Shown here: piece after piece, positions 871-19,207 of the stretch
Position numbering within the stretch: position 1 is the first letter of the stretch
Layout of the letters: every line of letters begins with the position of its first letter
DNA from: Ruminococcus sp.
GTDB lineage: Bacteria; Bacillota; Clostridia; Oscillospirales; Acutalibacteraceae
Assembly (NCBI GenBank): GCA_017473555.1
Contig: JAFUKO010000132.1
Span: 1 to 39,559 of the forward strand
Direction: 5' to 3'
DNA length: 39,559 bases
Translations under genes and position numbers: made by a program
The notes under the pieces: generated by a model
Databases searched by the model: none
What the model was told of the DNA's origin: nothing
What the model saw: the letters and a program-made list of their open reading frames with translations, nothing else

Positions 871-899
871 TTGACAAATGGTTTTAATGGTGTTACACT
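871..899 (+). promoter_or_regulatory. Sigma-A promoter of the Ile T-box unit
   Basis: TTGACA (871-876), 17-bp spacer, TACACT (894-899). Transcription would start near 906, just before the T-box leader. The flank AAAATATTGACA is shared with the promoter at 3492. The 772-870 stretch before it holds only the PAP2 upstream region. Confidence 0.8.
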
Positions 900-905
900 A
901 AGCAA

Positions 906-1173
906 AAATCGAAAAAGCTGTGACGAAGACGGCTGTATTTATTTGTTTTCAGAGAGTCGGTGGAAGGTGCGAACCGATAACGAGTATATATGAAGCCCAT
1001 CACTTCTGAGCTGGAAGCCCGAACACCAAGAGTTAGTAGACGCTTTCCGTGATTGCTGCGTAAAGGCATAGGGGTTGTTGGACTCCGAGAGTGGCAGAGT
1101 AATCTGCAATTTGAGTGGTACCGCGAGTGTATTTTACACCCGTCTCAAAGGTTTCTTTGAGGCGGGCTTTTTT
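906..1173 (+). promoter_or_regulatory. T-box riboswitch, isoleucine specifier (ATC)
   Basis: Leader RNA that reads tRNA charging. Visible elements in order: GACGAAGA near the Stem I base, AGAGAG (951-956), the distal GGTGGAA/GCGAACC region, specifier codon ATC at 999-1001 followed by ACTTCTGAGC, T-box AGTGGTACCGCG (1114-1125), and a terminator with arms 1139-1150 and 1155-1166 plus a T-run at 1168-1173. The UGGU bulge would pair with an ACCA tRNA end, fitting tRNA-Ile (discriminator A). Uncharged tRNA-Ile should stabilise the antiterminator and switch on the downstream synthetase. The specifier was assigned by aligning the three leaders in this window on the conserved sequence after the codon. 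Confidence 0.88.
1139..1173 (+). terminator. Regulated terminator of T-box 1
   Basis: A 12-bp stem (CCCGTCTCAAAG with CTTTGAGGCGGG), GTTT loop and six T residues. It is the off-state structure of the Ile T-box. Its 5' arm lies just after the T-box, as expected for an antiterminator alternative. Confidence 0.85.
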
Positions 1174-1206
1174 GATTTTTGAATCATTTTTTCAGGAGGA
1201 GTTATT

Positions 1207-3477
1207 ATGGCTCAAGTTGAAACTCAAAAGCTATTAGAGGTAGAGGTAAGAATTAAAGAAATGAGAGAAATCTATGGTTTTTCTGAGCAGGAGATGGCAA
1301 AGAGAACCGAGGTTACTGTTGAGCAGTACGTTGATTTTGAAAGTGGTAAGCTCGACTTCCCATTCACATTTATTCACAAATGTGCTTTAGCATTTAATAT
1401 TGGTATTTCAGATCTTCTAGAAGGTAAGAGCGCTCTGCTCTCTTCATATACAGTAACCCGTAAGGGTCAGGGTCAGCAGACTGCTAAAGAAGACGGCATT
1501 TCTATCCAGAACCTTGCTCCTTGGTTTCGAAAGAAAATCTCAGAACCTTACTTTGTAACATACCAGTATTCACAGGAATTACAGAATAAGCCTATTCATC
1601 TTACAAAACACTCAGGTCAGGAATTTGACTATGTAATAAAGGGTAAGCTTAAAATTCAGGTTGGTGACAACGTTGAGTATTTAAGTGAAGGTGACAGCAT
1701 CTACTACAACTCATCAACACCTCACGGTATGATTGCCGTTGACGGAGCAGAGTGCCAGTTTGTAGCGGTTGTACTGCCTGGTGAGAACGAGTCTGAGGAT
1801 ATCATCCGTGACACACTTATGGCTCACAACGAGGTTCCTGATACAAAGCTCTTATGCGAGGAGTTCATCAAAACTACTGTTGACGAAAATGGTAGCTTGA
1901 AGGCTATCGACTTTGAAAACGAGGACAGATACAACTTTGCATTCGATACAGTTGACGCTATCGCTAAGAAAGACCCTGAGAAGCTTGCGATGATTCACGT
2001 TGACAGAGAAAAGAACGAGCGTAGATTTACATTCAACGATATGAAGCGTAAGTCAGCTCAGGCTGCAAACTACTTTAAGAGCTTAGGTATCAAAAAAGGT
2101 GACAGAGTAATGCTTGTATTAAAGCGTCACTACCAGTTCTGGTTTGCAATCTTAGGTCTGCACAAACTCGGTGCTATCGCTATCCCTGCTACAAACCAGC
2201 TTCAGGCTCATGACTTTGATTACCGCTTTAACGCAGCTGGTGTTTCTGCTATCGTTTGTACTGCTGACGGCGATGTATCACATCAGGTTGATATCGCTCA
2301 GGAGAAGTCACCAACATTAAAGACTAAAGTATTAGTCGGCGGTCAGAGAGAGGGCTGGCATAACTTTGACGAGGAGTTTGACCTCTTCTCAGCTCATTAC
2401 TACAGAAACGAAGATTCACCTTGTGGTGATGACCCGATGCTTATGTTCTTTACATCAGGTACCACAGGTTATCCTAAAATCGCTTTACATTCATATAAAT
2501 ACGCACTCGGTCACTTTATCACAGCTAAGTATTGGCACGGTGTTATGACTAACGGCGTTCACTTTACTATCTCTGACACAGGTTGGGGTAAGGCACTGTG
2601 GGGTAAGCTCTACGGTCAGTGGTTAAGCGAGGGTGCAGTATTCACCTACGATTTTGACCGCTTTGATGCTGCTGACATTCTTCCGATGTTCAAGAAGTAT
2701 AACATCACTACATTCTGTGCACCACCAACAATGCTTCGAATGATGATCAAGCAGGATTTATCAAAATACGATTTCACATCACTTAAACGTGCTACAACAG
2801 CAGGTGAGGCATTAAACCCTGAGGTTTACAAGCAGTTTAAAATGGCTACAGGTCTTAAGCTCAAAGAAGGCTTTGGACAGACTGAAACAACACTTTCAAT
2901 CGCTAACCTTGTTGGCGAAACTTCTAAGCTTGGTTCAATGGGTAAGCCTGTACCACTTTACGATATCCACATTTTAGATGCAGATGGAAACGATGTTCCT
3001 AACGGTGAAACAGGCGAAATCTGTATCAAGACATCCGACAAGGTTCCTTGTGGCTTGTTCCTTGGATATTACAACGATGACGAAAAGACTAAAGAAGTTT
3101 ACCACGATGGTTATTATCACACAGGCGACACAGCGTGGCGTGATGAGGACGGTTTCCTCTGGTATGTTGGTCGTGTTGACGACGTTATCAAGAGCTCAGG
3201 CTACCGTATCGGACCGTTTGAAATCGAGTCTGTTATCATGGAGCTTCCTTATGTACTTGAGTGCGGCGTATCAGCAGAGCCTGACGAGGTAAGAGGTCAG
3301 GTCGTAAAGGCTTCTATCGTACTTGTTAAGGGCACAAATCCATCCGATGACCTTAAGAAAGAAATCCAGAATTATGTAAAATCCCGTACAGCTCCGTACA
3401 AATATCCACGTATAGTTGTATTCAGGGATGACCTTCCAAAGACAATCAGCGGTAAAATCCAGAGAAACAAGCTTTAA
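1207..3477 (+). CDS. XRE-cupin-acyl-CoA synthetase fusion, Ile T-box controlled
   Basis: A 756-aa AMP-forming acyl-CoA synthetase with an unusual N-terminus. Residues about 15-72 form an XRE-type helix-turn-helix and about 115-192 a cupin barrel (EGDSIYYNSSTPHGM). The ANL adenylation domain runs from about 240 to the end. Its ATP motif TSGTTGYPK starts near 416, the YHTGD and GRVDD hinge motifs follow, and the acyl-adenylating lysine is K750 (SGKIQRN). The enzyme should activate a carboxylate with ATP and CoA in the cytoplasm. The Ile T-box and the paralogue beside the oxidoreductase operon suggest 2-methylbutyrate as substrate (inference). The start has a GGAGG site. The HTH may give a second layer of control or may be purely structural. 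An acetyl- or propionyl-CoA synthetase activity cannot be excluded. Confidence 0.88.
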   Translation: MAQVETQKLLEVEVRIKEMREIYGFSEQEMAKRTEVTVEQYVDFESGKLDFPFTFIHKCALAFNIGISDLLEGKSALLSSYTVTRKGQGQQTAKEDGISIQNLAPWFRKKISEPYFVTYQYSQELQNKPIHLTKHSGQEFDYVIKGKLKIQVGDNVEYLSEGDSIYYNSSTPHGMIAVDGAECQFVAVVLPGENESEDIIRDTLMAHNEVPDTKLLCEEFIKTTVDENGSLKAIDFENEDRYNFAFDTVDAIAKKDPEKLAMIHVDREKNERRFTFNDMKRKSAQAANYFKSLGIKKGDRVMLVLKRHYQFWFAILGLHKLGAIAIPATNQLQAHDFDYRFNAAGVSAIVCTADGDVSHQVDIAQEKSPTLKTKVLVGGQREGWHNFDEEFDLFSAHYYRNEDSPCGDDPMLMFFTSGTTGYPKIALHSYKYALGHFITAKYWHGVMTNGVHFTISDTGWGKALWGKLYGQWLSEGAVFTYDFDRFDAADILPMFKKYNITTFCAPPTMLRMMIKQDLSKYDFTSLKRATTAGEALNPEVYKQFKMATGLKLKEGFGQTETTLSIANLVGETSKLGSMGKPVPLYDIHILDADGNDVPNGETGEICIKTSDKVPCGLFLGYYNDDEKTKEVYHDGYYHTGDTAWRDEDGFLWYVGRVDDVIKSSGYRIGPFEIESVIMELPYVLECGVSAEPDEVRGQVVKASIVLVKGTNPSDDLKKEIQNYVKSRTAPYKYPRIVVFRDDLPKTISGKIQRNKL

Positions 3478-3526: not shown

Positions 3527-3799
3527 GTATTTTTTAAAAGGCTATGACGAAGAGTACACATTAGTATGACCTAAAGAGAGGTAGCGGTTGGTGGAAGCTA
3601 CCGGACTACAGCTTTTGTGTTTGTAGCTTCTGAGCCGAGAGGAAGAAAGCGTTTGTGAGTAGAACCTCTCCGTGATTGCTGCGTAAAGGCATAGGGGTTG
3701 TTAGACCTCGAGAGTGGCGATTGTATCGCAATTTGAGTGGTACCGCGGGTGATTATTACGCACTCGTCTCAAAGATAACTTTGGGACGGGTGTTTTTTT
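3527..3799 (+). promoter_or_regulatory. T-box riboswitch, valine specifier (GTA)
   Basis: Elements in order: GACGAAGAGTA at the base of Stem I, AGAGAG (3575-3580), a distal stem GGTAGC/GCTACC enclosing GGTTGGTGGAA, specifier GTA at 3623-3625 followed by GCTTCTGAGC, T-box AGTGGTACCGCGG (3736-3748), and the terminator at 3761-3799. Aligned on TTCTGAGC, the GTA codon takes the place of ATC in T-box 1. The UGGU bulge again fits a tRNA with discriminator A, as in tRNA-Val. The Stem II/III-to-T-box region is nearly identical to T-box 1, so the two leaders share an ancestor. The Val reading is a little less certain than the Ile and Leu ones because a CTACA/TGTAG pairing could enclose the codon. Confidence 0.82.
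3761..3799 (+). terminator. Regulated terminator of T-box 2
   Basis: A 14-bp stem with arms 3761-3774 and 3779-3792, ATAA loop, and seven T residues. It is the off-state of the Val T-box. It may also end read-through transcripts from the upstream synthetase gene. Confidence 0.85.
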
Positions 3800-3826: not shown

Positions 3827-6115
3827 ATGCAACAAATGACTGGACTTGACTACAAAATTCAGGAAATGGCGGCTCGTATCAGAGAGCTTAGAGAAATCCA
3901 GAACTTAACCGTTGAGCAAATGGCTAAGAAAACCGACGTTACGGTTGATGAATATTTAAGCTGTGAGGCTGGCAAAAGTGACTTGAACTTTGCTTTTATC
4001 TACCGTTGTGCGATGGCTCTTTCTGTCAACGTTACTGACATTATCGAGGGTTACTCACCAAACCTTAAGAGTTACTCTGTAACCAGAGCGGGTCTTGGTC
4101 AGAAAGTAGCTCAAGCTCACGGTATGACTTACTATAACCTCGCGTATGCTTTCCAGAACAGAATTGCCGAGCCTTTGTATGTTCGCTCAGTTTATGACGA
4201 AAATGCTCAGAATAACGACATCGAGCTCACAACCCACGAAGGTCAGGAGCTTGACATCGTAATCGAGGGTAACCTGATGGTTCAGGTTGGCGAGCACAAG
4301 GAGATTTTAGGCCCTGGTGACACTATCTACTTTGACTCCGATAAGCCACACGGTATGATTGCTGTTAACGGCAAGGACTGCGTATTCTACGCTATCGTGC
4401 TCAATCCTACAGGCGAGCCTATCCCTGAGCTTTCTTCCGGCAAGATTGTTGAGATTAAGAAAAAGGAAAGAAAGCACGAAGCTGACCGTATATATAAACA
4501 GTATGTTGATGTTGAAGAAAACGAGAAGGGTACACCTACTTCTATCAAGTTCAAGAACACAGACAACTTCAACTTTGCGTTTGACCTCGTTGATGCTCTC
4601 GCTGATAAAAAGCCTGAGAAGCTCGCGATGTTACATATTTCAAAAGACCACACAGAGCGTAGATTTACTTTCAAGGATATGAAGAAGGCATCCGCTCAGT
4701 GTGCTAACTACTTCAAGTCACTCGGTATCAAAAAGGGTGACAGGGTTATGCTTATCTTAAAGCGTCACTACCAGTTCTGGTTTGCAATGCTTGGTCTTAA
4801 CAAGCTCGGCGCTATCGCTATTCCTGCTCCAAACCAGCTTCAGGCTCACGACCTTGAGTACAGACTCAAGAGCGCAGGCATCTGTACAGTTATCTGTACT
4901 GCTGATGACGATGTTGCTCATCAGGTTGATATTGCAAGCGAGGATTATGACGGTCTCAAGAACAAGCTTATCGTTAACGGTGAGCGTGAGGGCTGGCGTA
5001 GCTTTGATGAAGAGTATACACTCTATTCAACACACTACAACAGAACCGAGGATGCTCCTTGTGGCGATGATTTAATGCTTATGTACTTCACATCAGGTAC
5101 ATCAGGCTATCCGAAGATTGCGGCTCACAACTACCGCTATCCACTCGGACATTTCCATACTGCCAAATACTGGCACAACGTTGACCCTGAGGGTCTCCAC
5201 TACACAATTTCAGACACAGGCTGGGCTAAGGCTATGTGGGGTAAACTCTACGGCCAGTGGCTGTGCGAGGCGGCAACCTTCGTTTATGACTTTGACCGCT
5301 TTGATGCTGCTGATATCCTGCCTATGTTTGCAAAATATCAGATTACAACATTCTGTGCACCACCAACAATGCTTAGAATGATGGTAAAACAGGATATCTC
5401 AAAGTACGATTTCTCCTCAGTTCAGCATATGACAACTGCAGGTGAAGCGCTTAACCCTGAGGTTTATCGTCAGTTTGAAAAGGCTACAGGCTTACAGATT
5501 ATTGAGGGCTTTGGTCAGACTGAGAGTACAATGATTGTCGGTAATATGACAGGTGCTCCTCATAAGATTGGTTCTATGGGTAAACCTGCTCCAATCTATG
5601 ATGTTATGCTCGTTGACGCTGACGGCAACGAAGTGCCTGACGGTGAGCCAGGTGAAATCGTTGTTAACCTCAAGAATGGTCATCCATGCGGTCTGTTTGT
5701 CGGCTACTACGGCGACGAAGAAAAGACCAAGGAAGTTATGCACGACGGTATTTATCACACAGGTGACGTTGCTTGGCGTGATGAGGACGGCTTCTTCTTC
5801 TACGAGGGTAGAGTTGATGACGTTATTAAGTCATCCGGCTATCGTATCGGACCATTTGAGATTGAGTCTGTTATTATGGAGCTTCCATATGTCTTAGAGT
5901 GTGGCGTTTCTGCTGCTCCTGATGAAGTGAGAGGTCAGATTGTAAAGGCTTCTATCGTACTTACAAAGGGCACAGAGGGTAATGATGACCTCAAGAAGGA
6001 AATCCAGTCTTATGTAAAGAGCCGTACAGCTCCTTACAAGTACCCACGACTTGTTGTGTTCAGAGATGAACTTCCAAAGACAGTCAGCGGTAAAATCCAG
6101 AGAAACCAACTTTAA
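3827..6115 (+). CDS. XRE-cupin-acyl-CoA synthetase fusion, Val T-box controlled
   Basis: A 762-aa paralogue of the gene at 1207-3477, with the same order: XRE helix-turn-helix (about 18-75), cupin (about 120-198, with GPGDTIYFDSDKPHGM), and AMP-forming acyl-CoA synthetase (about 245-762). The ATP motif MYFTSGTSGYPK starts near 419 and the catalytic lysine is K756 in SGKIQRN. The two proteins are very similar throughout, including the last 100 residues, so this is a tandem duplication. It is the first gene of the operon that carries the oxidoreductase and aminotransferase. By specifier and context, isobutyrate to isobutyryl-CoA is the likely reaction (inference). The start follows a GGAG site 8 nt upstream. 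Confidence 0.88.
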   Translation: MQQMTGLDYKIQEMAARIRELREIQNLTVEQMAKKTDVTVDEYLSCEAGKSDLNFAFIYRCAMALSVNVTDIIEGYSPNLKSYSVTRAGLGQKVAQAHGMTYYNLAYAFQNRIAEPLYVRSVYDENAQNNDIELTTHEGQELDIVIEGNLMVQVGEHKEILGPGDTIYFDSDKPHGMIAVNGKDCVFYAIVLNPTGEPIPELSSGKIVEIKKKERKHEADRIYKQYVDVEENEKGTPTSIKFKNTDNFNFAFDLVDALADKKPEKLAMLHISKDHTERRFTFKDMKKASAQCANYFKSLGIKKGDRVMLILKRHYQFWFAMLGLNKLGAIAIPAPNQLQAHDLEYRLKSAGICTVICTADDDVAHQVDIASEDYDGLKNKLIVNGEREGWRSFDEEYTLYSTHYNRTEDAPCGDDLMLMYFTSGTSGYPKIAAHNYRYPLGHFHTAKYWHNVDPEGLHYTISDTGWAKAMWGKLYGQWLCEAATFVYDFDRFDAADILPMFAKYQITTFCAPPTMLRMMVKQDISKYDFSSVQHMTTAGEALNPEVYRQFEKATGLQIIEGFGQTESTMIVGNMTGAPHKIGSMGKPAPIYDVMLVDADGNEVPDGEPGEIVVNLKNGHPCGLFVGYYGDEEKTKEVMHDGIYHTGDVAWRDEDGFFFYEGRVDDVIKSSGYRIGPFEIESVIMELPYVLECGVSAAPDEVRGQIVKASIVLTKGTEGNDDLKKEIQSYVKSRTAPYKYPRLVVFRDELPKTVSGKIQRNQL

Positions 6116-6128: not shown

Positions 6129-6800
6129 ATGATTATGAGAGATTTTAAACGAATTACTTTGCTTTGCGGGCACTATGGTAGTGGCAAAACAAATGTTGCT
6201 GTTAACTTTGCATTAGAGCTAAGAAAACAGCGTGACAGGGTGGCTATCGCTGACCTTGATATTGTCAATCCGTATTTTCGTTCAAAGGACTCTAGCTCTG
6301 AGTTTGAAGACAACGGCATCCGCCTTATCTGCTCAGAATTTGCTAACTCCAATGTCGATATTCCCGCATTGCCACAGGATATGTACGCTATAACCGATGA
6401 TAAAGAGCTTTCTGTTATTATCGATGTCGGCGGCGATGACAGAGGAGCACTCGCTCTTGGTCGTCTAGCCCCAAAAATAGTTGAAGAAAACGATTACGAG
6501 ATGCTGATGGTAATTAACTGCTATCGTCCGCTTACTCGTGATGCAGAGTCTACTATCGAAGTTATGCGTGAAATTGAATATGCAGGACACATAAAATTTA
6601 CGGGAATTATCAATAATTCAAATTTGGGTATTGCTACCACCCCCCAAGATGTGTTAAAATCTATAAAATACGCAAAGGAAGTGGCAAAACTGTCAGACCT
6701 TCCTCTGCTGTACACTACCGTCACTGACGATATATATAATGACTTATGCGACAAGATAGAAAACCTCTTGCCACTGAGTCTTCAGGCAAGACCTGTATAA
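6129..6800 (+). CDS. ParA/MinD-like P-loop NTPase in the 2-oxoacid oxidoreductase operon
   Basis: A 223-aa cytoplasmic P-loop protein. The Walker A motif GHYGSGKT (residues 14-21) is followed by ADLDIVNPYFRS and VIIDVGGDDRGA, which resemble the switch and Walker B regions of the SIMIBI (ParA/MinD/CobQ) class. It lies 13 bp after the synthetase gene and 26 bp before the ferredoxin gene, so it is almost certainly co-transcribed. It could help assemble cofactors or iron-sulfur clusters for the oxidoreductase, but nothing in the sequence proves this. The upstream ribosome binding site is weak. ATG at 6129 or 6135 are both possible, and translation may be coupled to the gene before it. Confidence 0.75.
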   Translation: MIMRDFKRITLLCGHYGSGKTNVAVNFALELRKQRDRVAIADLDIVNPYFRSKDSSSEFEDNGIRLICSEFANSNVDIPALPQDMYAITDDKELSVIIDVGGDDRGALALGRLAPKIVEENDYEMLMVINCYRPLTRDAESTIEVMREIEYAGHIKFTGIINNSNLGIATTPQDVLKSIKYAKEVAKLSDLPLLYTTVTDDIYNDLCDKIENLLPLSLQARPV

Positions 6801-6826: not shown

Positions 6827-7033
6827 ATGGCTAAATTAACATTCAAAACTGACAACTGCAAGGGTTGTGGACTGTGCGTTGAGGCTTGTCCAAAGAACTT
6901 GCTCATCCTTGCAAAAGACGAAATTAACAAAAAGGGTCATCATCCAGCTGTTATCACTGACGAGAGCAGTTGTATCGGTTGTGCTTTCTGTGCAACAATG
7001 TGCCCTGACTGCGTAATTAAGGTAGAGAGGTGA
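6827..7033 (+). CDS. vorD: Ferredoxin-like delta subunit of 2-oxoacid:ferredoxin oxidoreductase
   Basis: A 68-aa protein with two 4Fe-4S cluster motifs, CKGCGLCVEACP near the N-terminus and CIGCAFCATMCP near the C-terminus. Together they can hold two clusters. It starts the four-gene set for a multi-subunit 2-oxoacid:ferredoxin oxidoreductase and would pass electrons between external ferredoxin and the TPP site. The start is preceded by AAGGAAAGGGAGAG. Its small size and position fit the delta subunit of VOR/KOR-type enzymes. Whether the enzyme prefers branched 2-oxoacids or 2-oxoglutarate cannot be read from this subunit; the vor symbol follows the operon context. Confidence 0.85.
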   Translation: MAKLTFKTDNCKGCGLCVEACPKNLLILAKDEINKKGHHPAVITDESSCIGCAFCATMCPDCVIKVER

Positions 7034-7040: not shown

Positions 7041-8102
7041 ATGGCAGATAAAGTATTGATGAAAGGTAACGAAGCTATCGCTGAGGCTGCTATACTTGCA
7101 GGTTGTAAGCACTACTTCGGTTATCCTATTACTCCACAGACAGAAATCGCTGCTTATATGGCTAAGAAAATGCCTAAAATCGGCGGTTGCTTCTTACAGG
7201 CTGAAAGTGAAATCGCTGCTATCAATATGGTATATGGTGTAGCTTCAACAGGTAAGCGTGTTATGACTTCTTCATCATCACCTGGTATTTCACTTAAGGG
7301 TGAGGGTCTGTCATACATGGCAGGTTCAGATTTACCTTGTCTTGTTGTTAACGTACAGCGTGGTGGTCCTGGTCTTGGCGGTATCCAGCCTAGCCAGTCT
7401 GACTATTTCCAGGCTACAAAGGGCGGAGCACACGGCGACTTTAGAATGATCGTTTTAGCTCCTGCTTCAGTTCAGGAAATGGCAGAGCTCACAGTAAAAG
7501 GCTTTGAGCTTGCTGATAAATACAGAATGACTTCTATGATTTTAGCTGACGGTACTATGGGTCAGATGATGGAGCCTGTTGCGCTCGACTTTGACATCAA
7601 AGAGCGTCCAGCTACTCCTTGGGCTACAACAGGTACAAAGCTTGAGCGTGAGCACAACATCGTAAACTCACTCTCACTCGTTGCTGAAGAGCTTGAGCGT
7701 CTTAACTTCGAAAGATTTGAGCGTTACAAGGCTGTTGAAGAGAACGAGGCTATGTACGAAGAGTTTATGACTGAGGATGCTGACATTATCGTTGCTGCTT
7801 TCGGTATCGCTTCACGTGTTTCAAAGAACGCTATCGTTGAAGCTAGAAAGCAGGGCATCAAGGTTGGTCTTATCCGTCCAATCACTCTCTGGCCATTCCC
7901 TAAGGCTCCATTTGAGAAAGCTGCCAACACAGCTAAGGCTATTATTTCTGTTGAGCTTTCAATGGGTCAGATGATCGAGGATGTTAAGCTTGCTACAGGC
8001 TGCAAGGTTCCTGTAACTCTGTGCAACCGTGTTGGTGGTATGATTCCATCCCCTGAGCAGGTATTAGAGGCAATTATTGAAGCTAACGGAGGTGCAAACT
8101 AA
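7041..8102 (+). CDS. vorB: 2-oxoacid:ferredoxin oxidoreductase alpha subunit (VorB/KorA type)
   Basis: A 353-aa protein with the usual alpha-subunit features: an N-terminal pyrimidine-binding domain (MKGNEAIAEAAILAGCKHYF, then GYPITPQTE) and a C-terminal transketolase-like domain (IVAAFGIASRV, GLIRPITLWPFP). Length is typical for the separate alpha chain of branched-chain 2-oxoacid (VOR) or 2-oxoglutarate (KOR) ferredoxin oxidoreductases. The complex interconverts a 2-oxoacid plus CoA with an acyl-CoA, CO2 and reduced ferredoxin. In this T-box-induced setting the carboxylating direction is expected (inference). It starts 7 bp after the ferredoxin gene and its stop overlaps the next start by one base. 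Naming differs between databases; this chain is also called VorA. Confidence 0.85.
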   Translation: MADKVLMKGNEAIAEAAILAGCKHYFGYPITPQTEIAAYMAKKMPKIGGCFLQAESEIAAINMVYGVASTGKRVMTSSSSPGISLKGEGLSYMAGSDLPCLVVNVQRGGPGLGGIQPSQSDYFQATKGGAHGDFRMIVLAPASVQEMAELTVKGFELADKYRMTSMILADGTMGQMMEPVALDFDIKERPATPWATTGTKLEREHNIVNSLSLVAEELERLNFERFERYKAVEENEAMYEEFMTEDADIIVAAFGIASRVSKNAIVEARKQGIKVGLIRPITLWPFPKAPFEKAANTAKAIISVELSMGQMIEDVKLATGCKVPVTLCNRVGGMIPSPEQVLEAIIEANGGAN

Positions 8103-8860
8103 TGGCAGTAGTATTTGATAAACCACATGCTCTGGCAGATGTGCCTATGCACTATTGTCCGGGTTGTTTACACGGTGTTGTACACCGTCTTGTTGCTGAG
8201 GTTATTGACGAGCTCGGTATCGAGGGCAGAACAATCGGTATTGCTCCGGTTGGTTGCTCTGTTATGGCATATAACTATTTCAACTGCGATATGATTGAGG
8301 CGGCTCACGGTCGTGCTCCTGCAGTTGCTACAGGTGTTAAGCGTTCAGACCCTGAGAACAACATCGTATTTACATATCAGGGTGACGGTGATTTAGCGTC
8401 TATCGGTATGGCTGAAACTGTACACTCAGCTGCTAGAAACGAGAACATCACAATTATCTTTATCAACAACGCTATTTACGGTATGACAGGCGGTCAGATG
8501 GCTCCTACATCACTTCCTGGTCAGGTAACACAGACTTCTCCATACGGCAGGGACGTTAACCACTGCGGTTATCCTATCCGTGTTTGTGAGATGCTAAGTC
8601 AGCTTGAAGGTCCTGAGTACCTTGAGCGTGTTACAGTAAACAACGTTAAGAATATCAAAAACGCTAAGAAAGCTATCAAAAAGGCGTTCCAGAACCAGAT
8701 TGACGGCAAGGGCTTCTCACTCGTTGAGGTTGTATCATCTTGTCCTACAAACTGGGGTATGACTCCTATTGATGCGTTAAAGTGGATTGACGACAATATG
8801 CTCCCATACTATCCACTCGGCGTTTATAAGGACCGTTCAGCAGAAAAGGAGGAAGCATAA
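8102..8860 (+). CDS. vorA: 2-oxoacid:ferredoxin oxidoreductase beta subunit, TPP-binding
   Basis: A 252-aa thiamine pyrophosphate-binding subunit. CPGCLHGVVHR near the N-terminus and the TPP motif GDGDLASIG, ending in FINNAIYGMTGGQ, are hallmarks of this chain in KOR/VOR enzymes. The complex would make or break the C1-C2 bond of branched 2-oxoacids. The start overlaps the alpha stop (TAATG) and the end overlaps the gamma start in the same way, which points to translational coupling and matched subunit amounts. The database name of this chain varies (also VorB or KorB). Confidence 0.87.
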   Translation: MAVVFDKPHALADVPMHYCPGCLHGVVHRLVAEVIDELGIEGRTIGIAPVGCSVMAYNYFNCDMIEAAHGRAPAVATGVKRSDPENNIVFTYQGDGDLASIGMAETVHSAARNENITIIFINNAIYGMTGGQMAPTSLPGQVTQTSPYGRDVNHCGYPIRVCEMLSQLEGPEYLERVTVNNVKNIKNAKKAIKKAFQNQIDGKGFSLVEVVSSCPTNWGMTPIDALKWIDDNMLPYYPLGVYKDRSAEKEEA

Positions 8861-13015: not shown

Positions 13016-13987
13016 GTGCAGAGAGTTATCAGTATTGTTTTGGTTTTTATAATGCTTGTTTTAGGTGCAGTGGTCAGTGTGTCAGCTGAAGACTTGGATA
13101 TCAGCGACGAGCTTATGAATGCAATAAGGGAACTTAAAAACGATGAAACTTTATCTAAAGACGATTTCAACCTAATGTACAGCTATGAGATTTCGAAGGA
13201 TAAATATCTCGTGCGTTATAGTAGAAGGGAGTCGGCATCTCCTTGTGTTGTGTGTGAAATCGTGATGGGTGAGTATAAAATGACAATAGGTCAGCCTCCG
13301 ATTCCGATGATTTTGTACAACGGCAAGCTCTATGAAACCAAAGTTGCTTACGATGAGGGCATAATCGACTATGATGACCTTGAGATTATGTCTACATTTG
13401 AAAAGGTAAGTGTTGAAAAAATCGGTTGGAGCTATGAAACAGATTTTGTGAAGACTTATGTTGGTAGTTTAGCTGAGTATAGCTACGAAGAGGTATACCA
13501 CTATTATGGAGGCAATTACTTAGGTAGTAGTCCTGATTGGGTTTTAGCAAAGGGCTCCGTATCAGATAAGGAAGATTGTGATACACGTTATCTTAAGTAT
13601 GATGATTTTGTACTTGTGTGCAACGAGAGCACAGCTCCGTTTACAATGGGATACGGTGCTTTCTTTACTCCTTGGGACGGTTATGGTGGCGGTCATTGTT
13701 TCTATGATTTGGTGTCCGATTTTGACCTGATTGCAGAGAAAATGGATGGATTTACTGACATATTAAAAGAACAGGACGAAGCTGTTGAGCTGGGTAATTG
13801 CGACGGCGACGACGATTTATCTGTATTGGACGCAACACAGATCCAGCTGGTTGTTGCGAATCTTGATACAGCAGTCAAGTTAACTGACGAAAGAGGCGTT
13901 GAGTTTTACTTTGAAGACGCTGATTCAGACGGCGAGATTTCTATTTTAGATGCTACAGCTGTTCAGCTTAAGTTAGCTAAATTATAA
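13016..13987 (+). CDS. Secreted protein of unknown function with C-terminal dockerin
   Basis: About 323 aa. It opens with a signal peptide (RVISIVLVFIMLVLGAVVSV, then SAE). A central region of about 230 residues, rich in Tyr, Asp and Glu, matches no family I recognise. The C-terminus has two dockerin-like calcium loops, NCDGDDDLSVLD and DADSDGEISILD, each followed by AT-x-x-Q. Export and attachment to a cohesin scaffold are likely; the cargo activity is unknown. GTG at 13016 is preferred because AGGAGG at 13003-13008 is 7 nt upstream. The ATG at 13010 is in frame but only 1 nt from that site. Confidence 0.75.
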   Translation: MQRVISIVLVFIMLVLGAVVSVSAEDLDISDELMNAIRELKNDETLSKDDFNLMYSYEISKDKYLVRYSRRESASPCVVCEIVMGEYKMTIGQPPIPMILYNGKLYETKVAYDEGIIDYDDLEIMSTFEKVSVEKIGWSYETDFVKTYVGSLAEYSYEEVYHYYGGNYLGSSPDWVLAKGSVSDKEDCDTRYLKYDDFVLVCNESTAPFTMGYGAFFTPWDGYGGGHCFYDLVSDFDLIAEKMDGFTDILKEQDEAVELGNCDGDDDLSVLDATQIQLVVANLDTAVKLTDERGVEFYFEDADSDGEISILDATAVQLKLAKL

Positions 13988-14112: not shown

Positions 14113-14141
14113 TTGACATCTCAATTTCACTGTGATATATT
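14113..14141 (+). promoter_or_regulatory. Sigma-A promoter of the Leu T-box operon
   Basis: TTGACA (14113-14118), 17-bp spacer, TATATT (14136-14141). Transcription should start near 14148 at the beginning of the T-box leader. Spacing and boxes match the other two T-box promoters. Confidence 0.82.
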
Positions 14142-14147: not shown

Positions 14148-14405
14148 ATATTTTTCAAATGCGATGAAGAAATTATTCTTTGTCCAAAGTTTTTTTCAGA
14201 GAGCTGTCGGTTGGTGTAAGACAGTAAAAACGGTCAAAGAAGTCTCATTTTGGAGCAGAATCGCTGAACTGATTAAGCGATTACGGAGTGCCCCGTTACC
14301 ATGGCAAAAGGCTTGTTGGAGCCTTACTGAGTTGGTCGATTTTTCGGCAAACAGGGTGGTACCGCGATTTATTCGTCCCTGAGGCATTAGCCTTGGGGAC
14401 TTTTT
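14148..14405 (+). promoter_or_regulatory. T-box riboswitch, leucine specifier (CTC)
   Basis: Elements in order: GCGATGAAGA at the Stem I base, AGAGAG (14198-14203), distal CTGTCGGTTGGTGTAAGACAG, specifier CTC at 14244-14246 followed by ATTTTGGAGCAGAATCGC, T-box GGGTGGTACCGCG (14354-14366), and a terminator at 14375-14405. The CTC codon sits where ATC and GTA sit in the other two leaders. The UGGU bulge fits a tRNA with discriminator A, as in tRNA-Leu. Outside the core motifs this leader differs from the other two, so it is not part of their recent duplication. Uncharged tRNA-Leu should turn on the operon. Confidence 0.87.
14375..14405 (+). terminator. Regulated terminator of T-box 3
   Basis: An 11-bp stem GTCCCTGAGGC/GCCTTGGGGAC (two G-U pairs), ATTA loop and a T-run. 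It is the off-state of the Leu T-box. Confidence 0.85.
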
Positions 14406-14440: not shown

Positions 14441-15820
14441 ATGAAACAAGTAAGAATTGCAGACACAACATTATGCAAAGAAAATTCTAACTTCAGCTTT
14501 AAAGAGAAGCTCGAAATCGCTCGTCAGCTTGAGCGACTTTGTGTTGACACTATCGAGCTACCTGAAATTATAAATGAAAGAACAGACATCCTGTTTGTAC
14601 GCACAGTAGCATCTTTTGTTAAAAAGAGTGTTATCTCCGTTGCGGCAGGCTCTAGTATTGATAGCATCGAGAATGCTAAGAAAGCTCTGTCAAACACTGC
14701 TCATCCTTGTATTAGAATCGAGCTTCCTGTATCTCCTGCTTTAATGGAGTACAATCTCCATAAGAAGAACGCAAAGATGCTTGACTACATCAAAAAGTGT
14801 GTCGAGATAGCTAAGGACGGCTGTGATAACGTTGAGTTCTGTGCGGTTGATGCAACTCGTGCTGAGAAAGACTTCTTAAAGGATGCAATCAAGGTTGCGG
14901 TTGAAGCAGGTGCTACATCAATCTCTATCTGTGATTCAGCGTCATCAATGCTTCCTGATGATTTTGCTGAGTTTGCTGAAAAGATTGCTAAAAAGGCTGA
15001 TGTTCCTGTCGGTGTTAAGTGTGATGACAAAAACGGTTTAGCTGTTGCTCAGGCTATTTTATCAGCTCGTAAAGGCGTTAAGATAGTAAAGACTGCTGTT
15101 GACGGCGATTGCACACCGCTCGAGACATTTGCGACTATGGCTAAGAACTGCGGAGATTCATACGATTTCTACTGTAACATCCGTTTCACTGAGATGCACA
15201 GAATCATCAAGCAGATTAACCGCATTTCTGAAAACGCAAACAACGAGAACGCAGCAGTAACTTTAACTGATGCTGACGAAACATCAATCCACCTTGATGT
15301 CAAAGATACTCAAGAGGATATCGCAGTAGCTGTTAAAAAGCTCGGCTATGATTTATCAGAAGAGGATGAGGCTAAGGTATATGAAGAGTTCATCCGTGTT
15401 GCTGAGAAGAAGAACGTAGGTGCTAAAGAGCTCGATGCAATTGTTGCGTCCGTTGCTTTACAGGTTCCTGCTACATATAAGCTCATTTCCTATGTTATCA
15501 ACAACGGTAACATCATCAATTCAACAGCTCAGATTACTTTAGAAAAAGACGGCGAGCAGTTACAGGGTATCTGCATCGGCGACGGCCCTGTGGACGCTTC
15601 GTTCCTTGCTATTGACCAGATTGTCGGCCATCACTATGAGCTTGACGATTTCCAGATTCAGTCAGTAACTCAGGGCAAAGAGGCTATGGGTTCTGCACTT
15701 GTTAAGCTTAGAAACGGCTCAAAGCTGTATTCAGGCAACGGTATTTCAACCGATATTATGGGTGCAAGTATCAGAGCATACTTAAACGCTGTTAACAAGA
15801 TTGTTTACGAGGAGGCGTGA
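14441..15820 (+). CDS. LeuA-like protein with degenerate catalytic barrel and intact regulatory domain
   Basis: A 459-aa protein with the layout of 2-isopropylmalate synthase: an HMGL-like TIM barrel (about 1-270), linker (about 270-335) and LeuA dimer/regulatory domain (about 335-455, with GDGPVDASFLAID and STDIMGASIRAYLNAVN). The barrel has lost the expected active site. DTTLRDGEQ is DTTLCKENS (residues 8-16), so the catalytic Arg is gone. The HxHxD metal site is KCDDK (193-197), so both His are gone. The GER-GN motif is also missing. It is unlikely to make 2-isopropylmalate. With the leucine-binding-type domain preserved under a Leu T-box, a leucine-sensing or partner-regulating role is plausible (inference). 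ATG 14441 is the true start: an earlier in-frame ATG at 14288 lies inside the T-box RNA. Confidence 0.8.
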   Translation: MKQVRIADTTLCKENSNFSFKEKLEIARQLERLCVDTIELPEIINERTDILFVRTVASFVKKSVISVAAGSSIDSIENAKKALSNTAHPCIRIELPVSPALMEYNLHKKNAKMLDYIKKCVEIAKDGCDNVEFCAVDATRAEKDFLKDAIKVAVEAGATSISICDSASSMLPDDFAEFAEKIAKKADVPVGVKCDDKNGLAVAQAILSARKGVKIVKTAVDGDCTPLETFATMAKNCGDSYDFYCNIRFTEMHRIIKQINRISENANNENAAVTLTDADETSIHLDVKDTQEDIAVAVKKLGYDLSEEDEAKVYEEFIRVAEKKNVGAKELDAIVASVALQVPATYKLISYVINNGNIINSTAQITLEKDGEQLQGICIGDGPVDASFLAIDQIVGHHYELDDFQIQSVTQGKEAMGSALVKLRNGSKLYSGNGISTDIMGASIRAYLNAVNKIVYEEA

Positions 15821-15822
15821 GC

Positions 15823-18348
15823 ATGAAACTCTCATTTTCTACTAAAGGCTGGCACAACAGCAATTTTGATGATTTTTGTGAAGCAGCCAACTATATCGGT
15901 TTTTCAGGTATAGAGCTGCACAATATACACAACCGTCTTTTCACTGAGAAAGACGGTGCTTTCCACGATTACGCATCTGCTGCTACATTACGCAGACTTT
16001 TTGAGAAAAAGCTCGAGATTCCTTGTATCGACGTTGTAGCTGACATCGCTGACAGTGAAAACGAAACTGACACAGTTGATGAAATCAAGAGATGTATCGA
16101 GATTGCTAACAACTTACGCATTCCTTACATCCGTATGCGTGCTAATAACTCTACAGATAAAGAGGCGGCTACTGCTCAGGTTGTTAAGACTATCGAAGCA
16201 GTTCACGCTTTAGCTATTGATAATAACGTAACTTTACTCATAGAAACATCAGGTCTGTTTGCTGTTACAAAGACTCTGTGCGAGGTGCTGGACTCATTTG
16301 CAAGTGACAATGTTGCGGCTTTGTGGCATCTTTCACACGCATATTTTGCAGGTAAAGAATCTCCTGAGCAGGTTATCAAAAATCTCGGTGCATATGTAAA
16401 GCACGTGCATTTTTCTGATGCCAAAAAGGTTGACGATAAGGTAGAGTACTGCTTAGCAGGTGAGGGTGAGCTCCCTATTAAAGAAATGATGCTCGCTTTA
16501 AGCTCAGTAAACTATGACGGCTATATCTCACTTATCTGGGACCCAAGCTGGTGCGAAGAGCTTGATGATATGGAAATCATTTTTGCTCAGTACAAAGAGT
16601 TTATGAAGCAGTTTGATGACACTTCAAAGAACAAGAAAACTCTCTACTATAACAACCGCCACACAGGTAAATTTGTGTGGAAAAAGGATTTGCTGATTGA
16701 CGCTACATTCGGCGACGTGCTCGACAAAATGGTCGAGGAGTTCCCTGACCAGTATGCGTTCAAATACACAACTCTTGACTATACACGTACATATTCAGAG
16801 TTTCGAGATGATGTTGATACCTTTGCCCGTGCACTCATCGCTATGGGTGTTAAAGCAGGCACAAAGGTAGCAGTCTGGGCGTCTAACGTACCACAGTGGT
16901 ACATCGCTTTCTGGGCAACCGTAAAAATCGGTGCTATCTTAGTTACAGTTAACACAGCATACAAAATCCACGAGGCTGAGTACCTTTTCCGTCAGTCTGA
17001 TACTCACACACTGATTATGACTCAGGGTGCTAAGGATACAAACTACGGCGATATAGTTGCTAAGCTCTGTCCTGAGCTTGAAAATACAAAAGAGGGCAAT
17101 CAGGTTCACTCAAAGCGTCTGCCGTTCTTACGCAACGTTATTACAGTAGGCTTTAAGCAGAAGGGCTGTATGACATGGAATCAGGCTCTTGAATTCGCAA
17201 ACAAAGTTCCTGTTTCTGAAGTGCATCGTATGGCGGCACTTGTTGATAAAAACGACGTTTGTAATATGCAGTACACTTCAGGTACTACAGGCTTCCCTAA
17301 GGGCGTAATGCTCACTCACTACAATATTGTAAATGACGGTAAATGTATCGGCGACAGAATGGACCTCTCAACTGCTGACAGAATGATGGTTCAGGTTCCT
17401 ATGTTCCATTGCTTCGGTATGGTGCTCGCAATGACAGCTACTATGACCCACGGCGGAACACTGTTACCACTGCCATATTTCTCACCAAAGCCTGCACTTG
17501 CGTGTATCAACAACGAGCATATCACAGCGTTCCACGGTGTTCCTACAATGTTTATTGCATTACTCGAGCACGAGGACTTTGATAAAACAGACTTCTCCTA
17601 TATGCGTACAGGTATTATGGCAGGTTCGCCTTGTCCTATCTCTGTTATGCAGGACGTTGTCAATAAAATGAATATGAAAGAAATCACTATCGTTTATGGT
17701 CAGACAGAGGCTTCTCCTGGTTGTACAATGAGTTCTACTGACGACCCACTCGAGGTTCGAGTTGCAACAGTAGGTAGAGCACTTCCTGAAATTGAGTGCC
17801 GTATCGTTGACCCTGAAACAGGTGAGGATTGTCCTGATGAAGTGCCTGGCGAGTTCTTAGCTAGAGGCTACAACATTATGAAGGGTTACTATAAGATGCC
17901 ACAGGCTACTCCTGCCGCTATTGATAAAGACGGCTGGCTCCATACAGGTGACCTTGCTTGCCGCACAAAAGAGGGTAACTACCGTATTACAGGACGTTTA
18001 AAGGATATGATCATCCGTGGTGGTGAGAACATCTATCCTAAGGAGATTGAGGAGTTTATCTACACTCACGAAAAGGTAAGTGACGTACAGGTTATCGGTG
18101 TTCCTGATGAGCAGTATGGTGAAGAGATTATGGCTTGCATCATCTTAAAAGAGGGCGAGACTATGACAGAGGCTGAGATGAAGGACTATATCCTTGCTAA
18201 TATGGCACGTCACAAGGTTCCTCGTTACATCGACTTTGTAGATTCATTCCCGACAAATGCTGCGGGTAAGATTATGAAGTACAAGATGCGTGAGCAGGCT
18301 GTAGAAAAGCTCGGACTCCAGAAGGCTAACAGCGTGGAGACAGCGTAA
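15823..18348 (+). CDS. TIM-barrel/acyl-CoA synthetase fusion, Leu T-box controlled
   Basis: A fusion of about 841 aa. Residues 1-270 form a xylose-isomerase/AP-endonuclease-2-like TIM barrel (LLIETSG, HVHFSD). Residues about 290-830 are a complete AMP-forming acyl-CoA synthetase of the fatty-acyl type, with MQYTSGTTGFPKG from about 482, YGQTEAS, WLHTGD, GRLKDMIIRGGENIYP and the terminal catalytic lysine in NAAGKIMKYK. The barrel lacks some usual metal ligands (the final Glu position reads IWDPSW), so its activity is doubtful. The synthetase should activate a short or branched acid. The Leu T-box suggests isovalerate to isovaleryl-CoA (inference). The start is ATG 15823, with AGGAGG 7 nt upstream and 2 nt after the previous stop. 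The GTG at 15817 is too close to that site. Confidence 0.85.
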   Translation: MKLSFSTKGWHNSNFDDFCEAANYIGFSGIELHNIHNRLFTEKDGAFHDYASAATLRRLFEKKLEIPCIDVVADIADSENETDTVDEIKRCIEIANNLRIPYIRMRANNSTDKEAATAQVVKTIEAVHALAIDNNVTLLIETSGLFAVTKTLCEVLDSFASDNVAALWHLSHAYFAGKESPEQVIKNLGAYVKHVHFSDAKKVDDKVEYCLAGEGELPIKEMMLALSSVNYDGYISLIWDPSWCEELDDMEIIFAQYKEFMKQFDDTSKNKKTLYYNNRHTGKFVWKKDLLIDATFGDVLDKMVEEFPDQYAFKYTTLDYTRTYSEFRDDVDTFARALIAMGVKAGTKVAVWASNVPQWYIAFWATVKIGAILVTVNTAYKIHEAEYLFRQSDTHTLIMTQGAKDTNYGDIVAKLCPELENTKEGNQVHSKRLPFLRNVITVGFKQKGCMTWNQALEFANKVPVSEVHRMAALVDKNDVCNMQYTSGTTGFPKGVMLTHYNIVNDGKCIGDRMDLSTADRMMVQVPMFHCFGMVLAMTATMTHGGTLLPLPYFSPKPALACINNEHITAFHGVPTMFIALLEHEDFDKTDFSYMRTGIMAGSPCPISVMQDVVNKMNMKEITIVYGQTEASPGCTMSSTDDPLEVRVATVGRALPEIECRIVDPETGEDCPDEVPGEFLARGYNIMKGYYKMPQATPAAIDKDGWLHTGDLACRTKEGNYRITGRLKDMIIRGGENIYPKEIEEFIYTHEKVSDVQVIGVPDEQYGEEIMACIILKEGETMTEAEMKDYILANMARHKVPRYIDFVDSFPTNAAGKIMKYKMREQAVEKLGLQKANSVETA

Positions 18349-19157
18349 TGTATATGAAATTTACTGTTATTGACTCACATTGTCATATTTATCCTGAAAA
18401 GATTGCCAGCAAAGCGGTTGGAGGTACTGACCGCTTTTACGACATTGTTTCAAAATGCGAAGGTACGATTGATGACTTAATCGCTCGTGGCAAAAAAGCA
18501 GGCGTTGACCACTTTATTGTTCAGTCGGTTGCTACTACTCCACAGCAGGTCAGAAAAATAAACGAGTTTATCGCACAAAGTGTACAGGAGCACAAAGGAC
18601 TATTAACTGGTCTTGGCACACTTCATCCTGATAGCGAAGACCAGGCGGGTGATGTTGAGCATCTTATCTCACTCGGTCTGCAGGGTGTAAAGCTTCATCC
18701 TGATATCCAGCAGTTTGCGATTGACGACGAAAGATGTCTTAGAATCTACGACTTGTGTCAGGAAAAGGGTTTGCCGATTCTGATGCACACAGGTGACAAT
18801 AGATACGATTACTCTAACCCTAACAGACTTTTACCTGTGCTCAAAAAGTACAAGGATTTAGTAGTTATCGGTGCTCACTTTGGCGGTTGGTCAATGTGGG
18901 ATGAAGCGTGCGATGTGTACAAAGGCATCCCTAACTTCTACGTTGACTGTAGCTCAAGCCTTTACGCTATCACTCCTGAAACTGCTAAAAAGGTAGTCCG
19001 CACCTATGGTGCTGAGCACGTGCTCTTTGCTACCGACTACCCTATGTGGGAGCCAAGTGAGGAGATTGAGCGTTTTATGGCAATCGGCTTAACTGATGAA
19101 GAAAACGAGATTATCTTCTCAAAAAACGTCAGAAAGCTTTTCAACATTGATTTATAA
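18348..19157 (+). CDS. Amidohydrolase-family (Amidohydro_2) metal-dependent hydrolase
   Basis: A 269-aa TIM-barrel protein with the amidohydrolase-2 signature set: HCH in DSHCHIYPEK near the N-terminus, KLHPD, MHTGD, GAHFGGW, and a late metal Asp in FATDYPMWEP. Relatives include ACMSD-like decarboxylases and lactone or amide hydrolases. The real substrate is unknown. The start overlaps the previous stop (TAATG) with a GGAG site 8 nt upstream, so it is translationally coupled to the synthetase fusion. It ends the Leu T-box operon just before the terminator at 19184. A role in clearing or making an intermediate of leucine or isovalerate metabolism is speculative. Confidence 0.82.
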   Translation: MYMKFTVIDSHCHIYPEKIASKAVGGTDRFYDIVSKCEGTIDDLIARGKKAGVDHFIVQSVATTPQQVRKINEFIAQSVQEHKGLLTGLGTLHPDSEDQAGDVEHLISLGLQGVKLHPDIQQFAIDDERCLRIYDLCQEKGLPILMHTGDNRYDYSNPNRLLPVLKKYKDLVVIGAHFGGWSMWDEACDVYKGIPNFYVDCSSSLYAITPETAKKVVRTYGAEHVLFATDYPMWEPSEEIERFMAIGLTDEENEIIFSKNVRKLFNIDL

Positions 19158-19183
19158 AAACTGCAATATGCATATAGCAAAAG

Positions 19184-19207
19184 CCTCCGATTAATCGGAG
19201 GTTTTTT
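19184..19207 (+). terminator. Terminator of the Leu T-box operon
   Basis: Perfect 7-bp stem CCTCCGA/TCGGAGG, TTAA loop, six T residues. The gap from here to the promoter at 19392 contains a dyad-rich GC patch (19264-19288) and an 11-bp tandem duplication of GTTGCAGATTA (19337-19358), and no gene. Confidence 0.9.

What the first reader, a model, noticed from the sequence alone, without database searches (positions are those of the whole stretch)
871..19207. Three T-boxes (Ile, Val, Leu) wire three acyl-CoA synthetases to a branched-chain amino acid pathway built from fatty acids
Seen: three T-box leaders with specifier codons ATC (999-1001), GTA (3623-3625) and CTC (14244-14246), each ahead of a different acyl-CoA synthetase. 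The Val unit also encodes a 2-oxoacid:ferredoxin oxidoreductase and IlvE. Known: T-boxes switch on amino acid supply genes when the cognate tRNA is uncharged, and rumen anaerobes can make Val, Ile and Leu by reductive carboxylation of branched short-chain acids. Inference: each synthetase activates the acid matching its specifier (2-methylbutyrate, isobutyrate, isovalerate), and the shared VOR plus IlvE finish all three products. I know of no description of this three-way wiring.
Basis: partly seen in the sequence, partly recalled or inferred. Interest (0 to 1): 0.88.

Follow-up and report, generated by a model that had tools for sequence, protein, structure and literature searches.

The report
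RNA switches run fatty-acid-to-amino-acid recycling
A bacterium, probably from an animal gut, and many of its relatives appear to rebuild isoleucine, valine and leucine from short branched acids instead of making them the ordinary way, with a separate tRNA-sensing RNA switch for each amino acid in front of the genes that activate the matching acid.

Summary
The three T-boxes are real, at the stated places, with the stated specifiers (Ile ATC, Val GTA, Leu CTC). A Stem I model found 128 leaders in 80 named loci of other genomes: Ile codons before 42/42 Ile-unit genes, Val before 68/68, Leu before 17/17, with synonymous changes; 24 of 150 testable genes had no leader. The Ile and Val synthetases resemble a 2-methylbutyrate enzyme; beside its pocket lysine they have Gly (42/42) or Ala (67/67). 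The cluster stands in for the classical route: of 32 genomes with the Leu-unit synthetase, 27 have no IlvA, IlvC, IlvD or LeuB over cut-off. Exceptions exist.

The first Leu-unit gene is not a synthetase but a 2-isopropylmalate synthase that lost its active site and kept its leucine-binding domain: probably a leucine sensor. The Leu synthetase is of another family, fused to a degenerate isomerase barrel. The Ile and Val synthetases carry HTH-cupin domains. A further T-box (probably Phe) precedes a phenylacetate-CoA ligase-like gene beside indolepyruvate oxidoreductase.

Substrates are untested. The chemistry is long known; I did not find this wiring in the papers I could search, and two relevant surveys were not available.

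The parts
871..899 (+). sigma-70-like promoter of the Ile unit (TTGACA 871-876, TACACT 894-899)
   Evidence: read by eye
911..1150 (+). T-box leader, specifier ATC (Ile) at 999-1001
   Evidence: RF00230 95.4 bits, over cut-off
1139..1166 (+). terminator hairpin of the Ile leader, followed by a T run
   Evidence: fold z -3.25
1207..3477 (+). ACSi: HTH (XRE-like) + cupin + Macs-type acyl-CoA synthetase, 756 aa; predicted substrate 2-methylbutyrate
   Evidence: Pfam, cupin and AMP-binding over cut-off, HTH_19 29.5 of 30.2 bits; 3etc 630 bits
3492..3521 (+). sigma-70-like promoter of the Val unit
   Evidence: read by eye
3535..3774 (+). T-box leader, specifier GTA (Val) at 3623-3625
   Evidence: RF00230 89.4 bits, E 1.3e-18, just under the cut-off
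3760..3794 (+). terminator hairpin of the Val leader
   Evidence: fold z -3.95
3827..6115 (+). ACSv: HTH + cupin + Macs-type acyl-CoA synthetase, 762 aa; predicted substrate isobutyrate
   Evidence: Pfam, HTH models under cut-off; 3etc 616 bits
6129..6800 (+). MinD/ParA-like P-loop protein, kept in the VOR operon of relatives; role unknown
6827..7033 (+). VorD, 68 aa ferredoxin-like subunit with two CxxCxxCxxxC motifs
   Evidence: ORF read by eye; kept in relatives
7041..8102 (+). VorB (alpha), 3-methyl-2-oxobutanoate dehydrogenase subunit
   Evidence: NF005507 536 bits, over cut-off
8102..8860 (+). VorA (beta, TPP domain)
   Evidence: PF02775
8860..9393 (+). VorC (gamma)
   Evidence: PF01558
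9432..10493 (+). IlvE, branched-chain amino acid aminotransferase
   Evidence: NF009897 484 bits, over cut-off
14113..14141 (+). sigma-70-like promoter of the Leu unit
   Evidence: read by eye
14155..14383 (+). T-box leader, specifier CTC (Leu) at 14244-14246
   Evidence: RF00230 125.2 bits
14375..14400 (+). terminator hairpin of the Leu leader
   Evidence: fold z -3.35
14441..15820 (+). LeuAx: pseudo-2-isopropylmalate synthase; active-site motifs lost, leucine-binding (LeuA_dimer) domain kept
15817..18348 (+). TIM-ACSl: xylose-isomerase-like barrel with degenerate metal site fused to a PRK12583-like acyl-CoA synthetase; predicted substrate isovalerate
18348..19157 (+). AHD: amidohydrolase-2 family protein; HxH, K, H, H, D signature seems intact; role unknown
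   Evidence: PF04909; signature read by eye in the translation
19183..19207 (+). intrinsic terminator ending the Leu unit
   Evidence: read by eye; explains the sub-threshold STnc230 hit

Best explanation
This is a salvage-based replacement of branched-chain amino acid biosynthesis, switched on one amino acid at a time. When tRNA-Ile, tRNA-Val or tRNA-Leu is uncharged, its T-box stops termination and the matching unit is transcribed. Its synthetase activates an acid from the surroundings: 2-methylbutyrate for Ile, isobutyrate for Val, probably isovalerate for Leu. The 2-oxoacid:ferredoxin oxidoreductase (VorDBAC, Val operon) carboxylates the acyl-CoA reductively, and IlvE transaminates the product. 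Shown by sequence: leaders, conserved codon identity, gene content, conserved pocket residues, absence of the classical enzymes. Inferred: substrates, reaction direction, sharing of VOR and IlvE. A second, protein-level control is likely: HTH-cupin domains on the Ile and Val synthetases, and in the Leu unit a catalytically dead isopropylmalate synthase that keeps the leucine-binding domain and probably senses leucine.
For: Three T-boxes with terminators. Codon identity in 80 named loci, of which 71 hold a leader: ACSi Ile 42/42, ACSv Val 68/68 (GTA 61, GTC 6, GTG 1), LeuAx Leu 17/17 (CTC 16, CTG 1). In stretches of unnamed relatives, partly the same species, 76 leaders: ACSi ATC 25, ACSv GTA 14, LeuAx CTC 18 and CTG 2 (one leader seen in two overlapping stretches), TIM-ACSl CTC 5, unfused ACSl CTC 1, two other Macs-type synthetases GTA, PaaK-like 7, no listed gene 2. 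Closest solved protein is 3etc, whose enzyme prefers 2-methylbutyrate (PMC10455477, passages). Residues W237, K256, W259, C298 and G351 are kept in 42/42 ACSi and 67/67 ACSv; position 255 is Gly in 42/42, Ala in 67/67. Of 32 genomes with TIM-ACSl, 27 have none of IlvA, IlvC, IlvD, LeuB over cut-off; of 29 same-genus genomes without it, 21 have all four. IlvC, IlvD and LeuB searches ring in 14 of 14 control genomes (LeuB over cut-off in 9). In L084 and L086 a Leu T-box is followed by LeuAx, TIM-ACSl, IlvE and VOR in a row. Rumen conversion of these acids is cited in PMC7356843 (passages).
Against: No assay. 24 of 150 testable genes in the 80 loci had no leader; ACSi of G074 and G050 (L067, L068) had none found either. 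G010 has all four classical enzymes plus the Ile unit; G026, G041 and G061 keep IlvC and IlvD; G026, G068 and G077 keep LeuB; G041 keeps IlvA. G058 and G063 have a LeuB-family match at E about 1e-77 under the cut-off, and G026 an IlvA fragment under it. Citramalate synthase is over cut-off in 6 of the 32 cluster genomes (G050, G062, G063, G071, G074, G077). The Gly/Ala split is one change on the tree, one event and not many. The Leu synthetase is not Macs-like, and AHD and TIM have no place in the scheme. The genome is a 93% complete MAG. Genomes in the counts are related, so the Fisher values overstate independence.
Confidence: 0.8

Rival explanations
1. Lipid priming: the synthetases make branched acyl-CoA primers for iso/anteiso membrane fatty acids, as MbcS is thought to do (recalled), and T-boxes turn them on because amino-acid-derived primers run short with the amino acids.
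For: Best NCBIfam match of both synthetases is MbcS, though at about half its cut-off (439 and 431 of 850 bits). Genomes lacking ilv/leu genes could be plain auxotrophs.
Against: VOR and IlvE lie in the Val unit and behind the Leu unit in L084 and L086. One leader per amino acid fits amino acid supply better. Both uses could coexist.
Confidence: 0.1
2. Catabolic operation: VOR and IlvE degrade the amino acids to acids, and the synthetases scavenge products.
For: The same enzyme families degrade amino acids in fermenters (general knowledge).
Against: T-boxes turn genes on when the amino acid is short, so a degradative operon would worsen starvation. The units stand in for biosynthesis genes.
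Confidence: 0.05
3. The Leu unit does something other than activate isovalerate: for example LeuAx, TIM, AHD and ACSl are condensation, dehydration, decarboxylation and activation steps of a new route to a leucine precursor.
For: Three genes with four modules under one Leu T-box; AHD ligands seem intact (by eye); the barrel has a dehydratase/isomerase fold.
Against: LeuAx has lost the metal Asp (kept in 8/46), both His (1/46 each) and the GxGERxGN loop (0/46). The barrel metal site is degenerate. In G057, G068, G074, G050 and G077 the Leu T-box precedes TIM-ACSl directly, and in G070 an unfused ACSl.
Confidence: 0.15
4. LeuAx is a working isopropylmalate synthase of unusual type rather than a pseudoenzyme.
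For: Strong homologues in 25 of 79 genomes, all 25 with TIM-ACSl; it resembles IPMS over the catalytic barrel.
Against: Catalytic motifs drift freely; median identity to the window protein is 39% in the barrel against 70% in the regulatory domain; no LeuB in the window genome.
Confidence: 0.07

Closest known systems
T-box leaders (Rfam RF00230)
   Same: Stem I, specifier loop, T-box sequence, antiterminator and terminator; codon matches the pathway's amino acid.
   Different: Target genes: acid-activating synthetases of a carboxylation route; I found no such target in the papers searched.
Reductive carboxylation of branched short-chain acids in rumen bacteria (Allison and co-workers, 1966-1971; seen as citations in passages of PMC7356843)
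   Same: Acid to 2-oxo acid to amino acid; phenylacetate to Phe is mentioned there too.
   Different: Here the likely genes, their three-way RNA control and the lack of the classical pathway are laid out.
Methanosarcina acetivorans Macs (PDB 3etc)
   Same: Catalytic domain over about 520 residues; five acyl-pocket residues kept.
   Different: Fused to HTH-cupin; paralogues split by amino acid; Gly to Ala beside K256 in the Val paralogue.
2-oxoisovalerate:ferredoxin oxidoreductase (VorDBAC)
   Same: Subunit set; alpha over the NF005507 cut-off.
   Different: In a Val T-box unit with a synthetase and IlvE, presumably run towards carboxylation.
2-isopropylmalate synthase (LeuA)
   Same: Barrel similarity and LeuA_dimer regulatory domain.
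   Different: Catalytic motifs lost; no LeuB found in the genome.

Membership tests
T-box leader (RF00230) | covariance model score at the curated cut-off | tested here: met
   125.2 and 95.4 bits over the cut-off of 93; the Val leader at 89.4 bits is just under it, E 1.3e-18
T-box leader (RF00230) | specifier codon matching the amino acid of the regulated pathway | tested here: met
   127 of 127 gene-assigned leaders in 80 loci; 4 of 4 aligned own-genome controls; two further own-genome leaders, before alaS and aspS by eye, were not aligned
T-box leader (RF00230) | terminator competing with the antiterminator | tested here: met
   terminator hairpins folded for three leaders; competition itself not modelled
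T-box leader (RF00230) | binds uncharged cognate tRNA | not testable with these tools
   needs in vitro transcription
Macs-type branched acyl-CoA synthetase | acyl-pocket residues W237, K256, W259, C298, G351 | tested here: met
   42/42 ACSi and 67/67 ACSv; W259 and the Gly replacing the Acs Trp are from passages, the rest of the list is recalled
MbcS (NF047394) | curated score | tested here: not met
   439 and 431 of 850 bits
2-oxoisovalerate:ferredoxin oxidoreductase | alpha subunit score and complete subunit set | tested here: met
   NF005507 536 over 399 bits; beta and gamma by Pfam, small subunit by eye
2-isopropylmalate synthase | metal ligands Asp, His, His and catalytic Arg | tested here: not met
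   (46 LeuAx against 4 true LeuA)
2-isopropylmalate synthase | leucine-binding regulatory domain | tested here: met
   PF08502 107 bits over 24.9; leucine binding itself not tested
xylose-isomerase-like enzyme (TIM domain) | fold | tested here: met
   pLDDT 91; listed PDB matches have TM 0.67-0.80 by query length
xylose-isomerase-like enzyme (TIM domain) | conserved metal ligands | tested here: not met
   two of four expected positions vary in the 40 rows printed of 53; the ligand pattern is recalled
phenylacetate-CoA ligase PaaK (TIGR02155), own contig C2 | curated score | tested here: not met
   521 of 646 bits, E 2e-156, best family; I call it PaaK-like

The most novel reading that the evidence does not exclude
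Gut Clostridia have, perhaps more than once, traded classical branched-chain amino acid synthesis for recycling of community-made isoacids, with two control layers per amino acid: a T-box reading the tRNA, and a protein sensor attached to or co-transcribed with each synthetase (HTH-cupin for Ile and Val, a dead isopropylmalate synthase reading leucine for Leu). A Gly-to-Ala change in the pocket, acquired with the change of specifier between Ile and Val, sets the acid used. A parallel T-box (Phe) unit feeds phenylacetate into Phe.
Probability: 0.45. Interest if true: 0.87.

Novelty: new variant of a known kind. Interest (0 to 1): 0.74.

Why it matters
Rumen bacteria have been known for decades to build amino acids from branched acids, and isoacids are sold as feed supplements. 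This gives candidate genes, substrates and switches, a genomic marker for lineages that may depend on isoacids, a case where RNA specifier codons annotate enzyme substrate, and a dead biosynthetic enzyme that may survive as a leucine sensor.

Tried and rejected
Operator for the HTH domains: an inverted repeat (ACCACA-N5-TGTGGT) lies upstream of the Ile promoter, but the best inverted repeats printed for relatives share no common sequence; dropped. Phe route as a replacement of prephenate dehydratase: not so, PF00800 is in the window genome and in 64 of 79. Independent origins of the Gly/Ala split: one change on a 118-row quick tree; an earlier 50-row tree left that fork open. First specifier parsers by text pattern misread some leaders by picking a wrong AGAGA or frame, so I replaced them by a covariance model. 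That model reads two PaaK-like leaders as TCC where the close relatives and the five-pair helix suggest TTC; I call Phe probable only. LeuC: the one aconitase-family place in the window genome is cut by a contig end, so LeuC absence is undecided there; only 29 genomes were searched. Identity of the Phe-cluster genes and controls was first read by eye and then checked: IorA, IorB, PheS, CysE, TrpB and ThrS over cut-off, PaaK under it, no family for the ACT-like protein at E 1e-20.

Literature: searches listed no description of this wiring. Searches were read as listings only. Wels 2008 (PMC2494555) has no hit in its main text for acyl-CoA, CoA ligase, ferredoxin oxidoreductase, AMP-binding, phenylacetate or keto; its supplements were not seen. 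PMC10311502 was seen in passages and not used. Two T-box surveys are not held, so earlier mention cannot be excluded.


Full report
OBSERVATION. Rfam finds three T-box leaders in the first 20 kb of the window: 911-1150, 3535-3774 and 14155-14383. The middle one is 3.6 bits under the curated cut-off but has E 1.3e-18. In an alignment of 19 Stem I sequences the same three columns hold TGC, TTC, TGG and ACC in four leaders of the same genome that precede cysE, pheS, trpB and thrS. The three window leaders end in a stable hairpin and a T run. The genome (G000, a 1.98 Mb MAG, 93% complete) has 10 T-box matches, 5 over cut-off.

GENES. The Ile unit is one gene, an HTH + cupin + AMP-binding protein; the HTH models score just under their cut-offs. 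The Val unit is a paralogue of it (63% identical), a P-loop protein, VorD, VorB, VorA, VorC and IlvE. Its first gene (LeuAx) is IPMS-like, its second is a TIM barrel fused to a synthetase of another family, its third an amidohydrolase.

CONSERVED WIRING. A search of 79 related genomes (the window's own included) found the Val synthetase or kin, distant kin included, in 75. Of 40 stretches fetched from them, 8 hold the Ile, Val and Leu synthetases together, one of them (G069) from another family with another order; many of the others are short or cut by contig ends. A covariance model of Stem I, built from 19 leaders, was run over 80 named loci from a genome scan with the synthetase alignment. 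It found 128 leaders in 71 of the 80 loci. Of these 127 precede a recognised gene: ACSi 42 (ATC 42), ACSv 68 (GTA 61, GTC 6, GTG 1), LeuAx 17 (CTC 16, CTG 1); one (GTC, L192) precedes none. Two pairs of leaders have identical sequence. Gene labels come from protein similarity, not from the leader. Of 150 such genes with enough upstream sequence, 126 have a leader and 24 do not; 6 more lie too near a contig or locus edge. Some of the 24 follow other genes of the cluster closely and may share an operon. In G057, G068, G074, G050 and G077 the Leu leader precedes the TIM-synthetase fusion directly, and in G070 an unfused Leu-type synthetase.

REPLACEMENT. Of the 79 genomes, 32 have the full-length TIM-synthetase, the window's own included. 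LeuB over cut-off is in 3 of these 32 and in 44 of the other 47; IlvC in 3 and 39; IlvD in 3 and 35; IlvA in 1 and 33. Of the 32, 27 have none of the four over cut-off. Within the window's genus, 18 of 19 genomes with it lack LeuB, and 29 of 29 without it have LeuB. The LeuB, IlvC and IlvD searches ring in 14 of 14 control genomes (LeuB over cut-off in 9); the IlvA model rings in 10 (over cut-off in 5) and is weaker. Exceptions: G026, G041 and G061 keep IlvC and IlvD; G026, G068 and G077 keep LeuB; G010 has all four plus the Ile unit. G058 and G063 have a LeuB-family match at E about 1e-77 under the cut-off, and other cluster genomes weaker ones of the isocitrate dehydrogenase kind by my reading. 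G041 is 66% complete. Citramalate synthase is over cut-off in 6 of the 32. Relatedness means the Fisher values (6e-15 to 9e-9) are not true probabilities.

SUBSTRATES. The closest solved protein to ACSi and ACSv is 3etc (630 and 616 bits), the Methanosarcina synthetase that prefers 2-methylbutyrate (PMC10455477, passages). Pocket residues W237, K256, W259, C298 and G351 (numbering by the YHTGD motif of that paper; W259 and the Gly are from its passages, the others recalled) are invariant in 42 ACSi and 67 ACSv. The one position of the catalytic part without overlap between the groups, among those split at 90% or more, is the one before K256: Gly in 42/42 ACSi, Ala in 67/67 ACSv; 3etc has Gly. 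One methyl more in the pocket fits one carbon less in the acid. On a 118-row tree it is a single change together with the change of specifier, so it is a conserved correlate of one event. Two Val-T-box synthetases of another clade (L098, L099) also have Ala, but Ala is common among their kin too.

LEU UNIT. LeuAx matches IPMS below every listed cut-off. In 46 LeuAx sequences against 4 true LeuA (a fifth fetched stretch gave none by my motif), the metal Asp is kept in 8, the two His in 1 each, and the GxGERxGN loop in none. Median identity to the window protein is 39% in the barrel and 70% in the regulatory domain. I read it as a catalytically dead IPMS kept for leucine sensing. Strong homologues occur in 25 of 79 genomes, all 25 with the TIM-synthetase. 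The TIM domain folds like xylose-isomerase-type enzymes, but two of the four expected ligand positions vary. That the synthetase uses isovalerate is inferred from the Leu T-box, from the lack of LeuB and from L084 and L086, where the Leu unit continues into IlvE and VOR.

PHENYLALANINE. On contig C2 of the same genome a T-box precedes a phenylacetate-CoA-ligase-like gene (521 of 646 bits), next to indolepyruvate:ferredoxin oxidoreductase A and B, both over cut-off. Specifier UUC is the better reading, with a five-pair helix after it; a one-base shift would give a Ser codon. Rfam-supported T-boxes stand before the same gene in four other families (L109-L112). The model also finds one in L105 and L106, close relatives; in the other PaaK loci fetched I found none by pattern or model. 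Prephenate dehydratase is retained, so this would be an auxiliary route.

KNOWN OR NEW. The chemistry is old (isovalerate to Leu, isobutyrate to Val, 2-methylbutyrate to Ile, phenylacetate to Phe; passages of PMC7356843). I found no description of T-box control of it, but two surveys that could mention it are not held. The 80 named loci are the best of at least 592; where a title names a source it is mostly the gut or rumen of a herbivore. The closest, L134 (Ruminococcus sp., roe deer rectum), encodes a Val synthetase 99% identical to the window's.

Noticed in passing
L011:766-6971 (own genome contig C2): AMP-ligase, IorA, IorB, T-box (probably Phe), PaaK-like ligase and an ACT-like protein (by eye) in a row on the minus strand: a further unit of the same logic.
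   Followed up: yes
window 1207-1830 and 3827-4459: N-terminal HTH and cupin domains fused to both synthetases; of 11 positions that separate the Ile and Val paralogues at 90% or more, 9 lie in this region, so the two may read different ligands or DNA.
   Followed up: partly
L012:8438-9658 (own genome contig C102): A Trp (UGG) T-box precedes a trpB gene (over cut-off).
   Followed up: no
window 6129-6800: A MinD/ParA-like P-loop protein is kept inside the VOR operon of many relatives; role unknown.
   Followed up: no
window 18348-19157: Amidohydrolase at the end of the Leu unit, at other places of the cluster in relatives (L055, L154); substrate unknown.
   Followed up: partly
window 805-821: Inverted repeat ACCACA-N5-TGTGGT upstream of the Ile promoter; no common repeat seen in the relatives printed.
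   Followed up: partly
window 19138-19215: Sub-threshold Rfam hit to STnc230 is explained by an intrinsic terminator.
   Followed up: yes
window 10645-12801: Leucine-rich-repeat protein with a weak dockerin match, between the Val and Leu units.
   Followed up: no
window 13010-13987: 325-residue ORF without a Pfam or NCBIfam match just before the Leu unit.
   Followed up: no
window 19462-22509: BlaI-like repressor and BlaR1-like M56 peptidase pair after the Leu unit.
   Followed up: no
L192:5497-5597: A GTC (Val) T-box on the minus strand without a recognised gene behind it.
   Followed up: no
L186: A Val-unit synthetase with a GTA T-box in a MAG titled Spirochaetales: transfer or mis-binning.
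   Followed up: no
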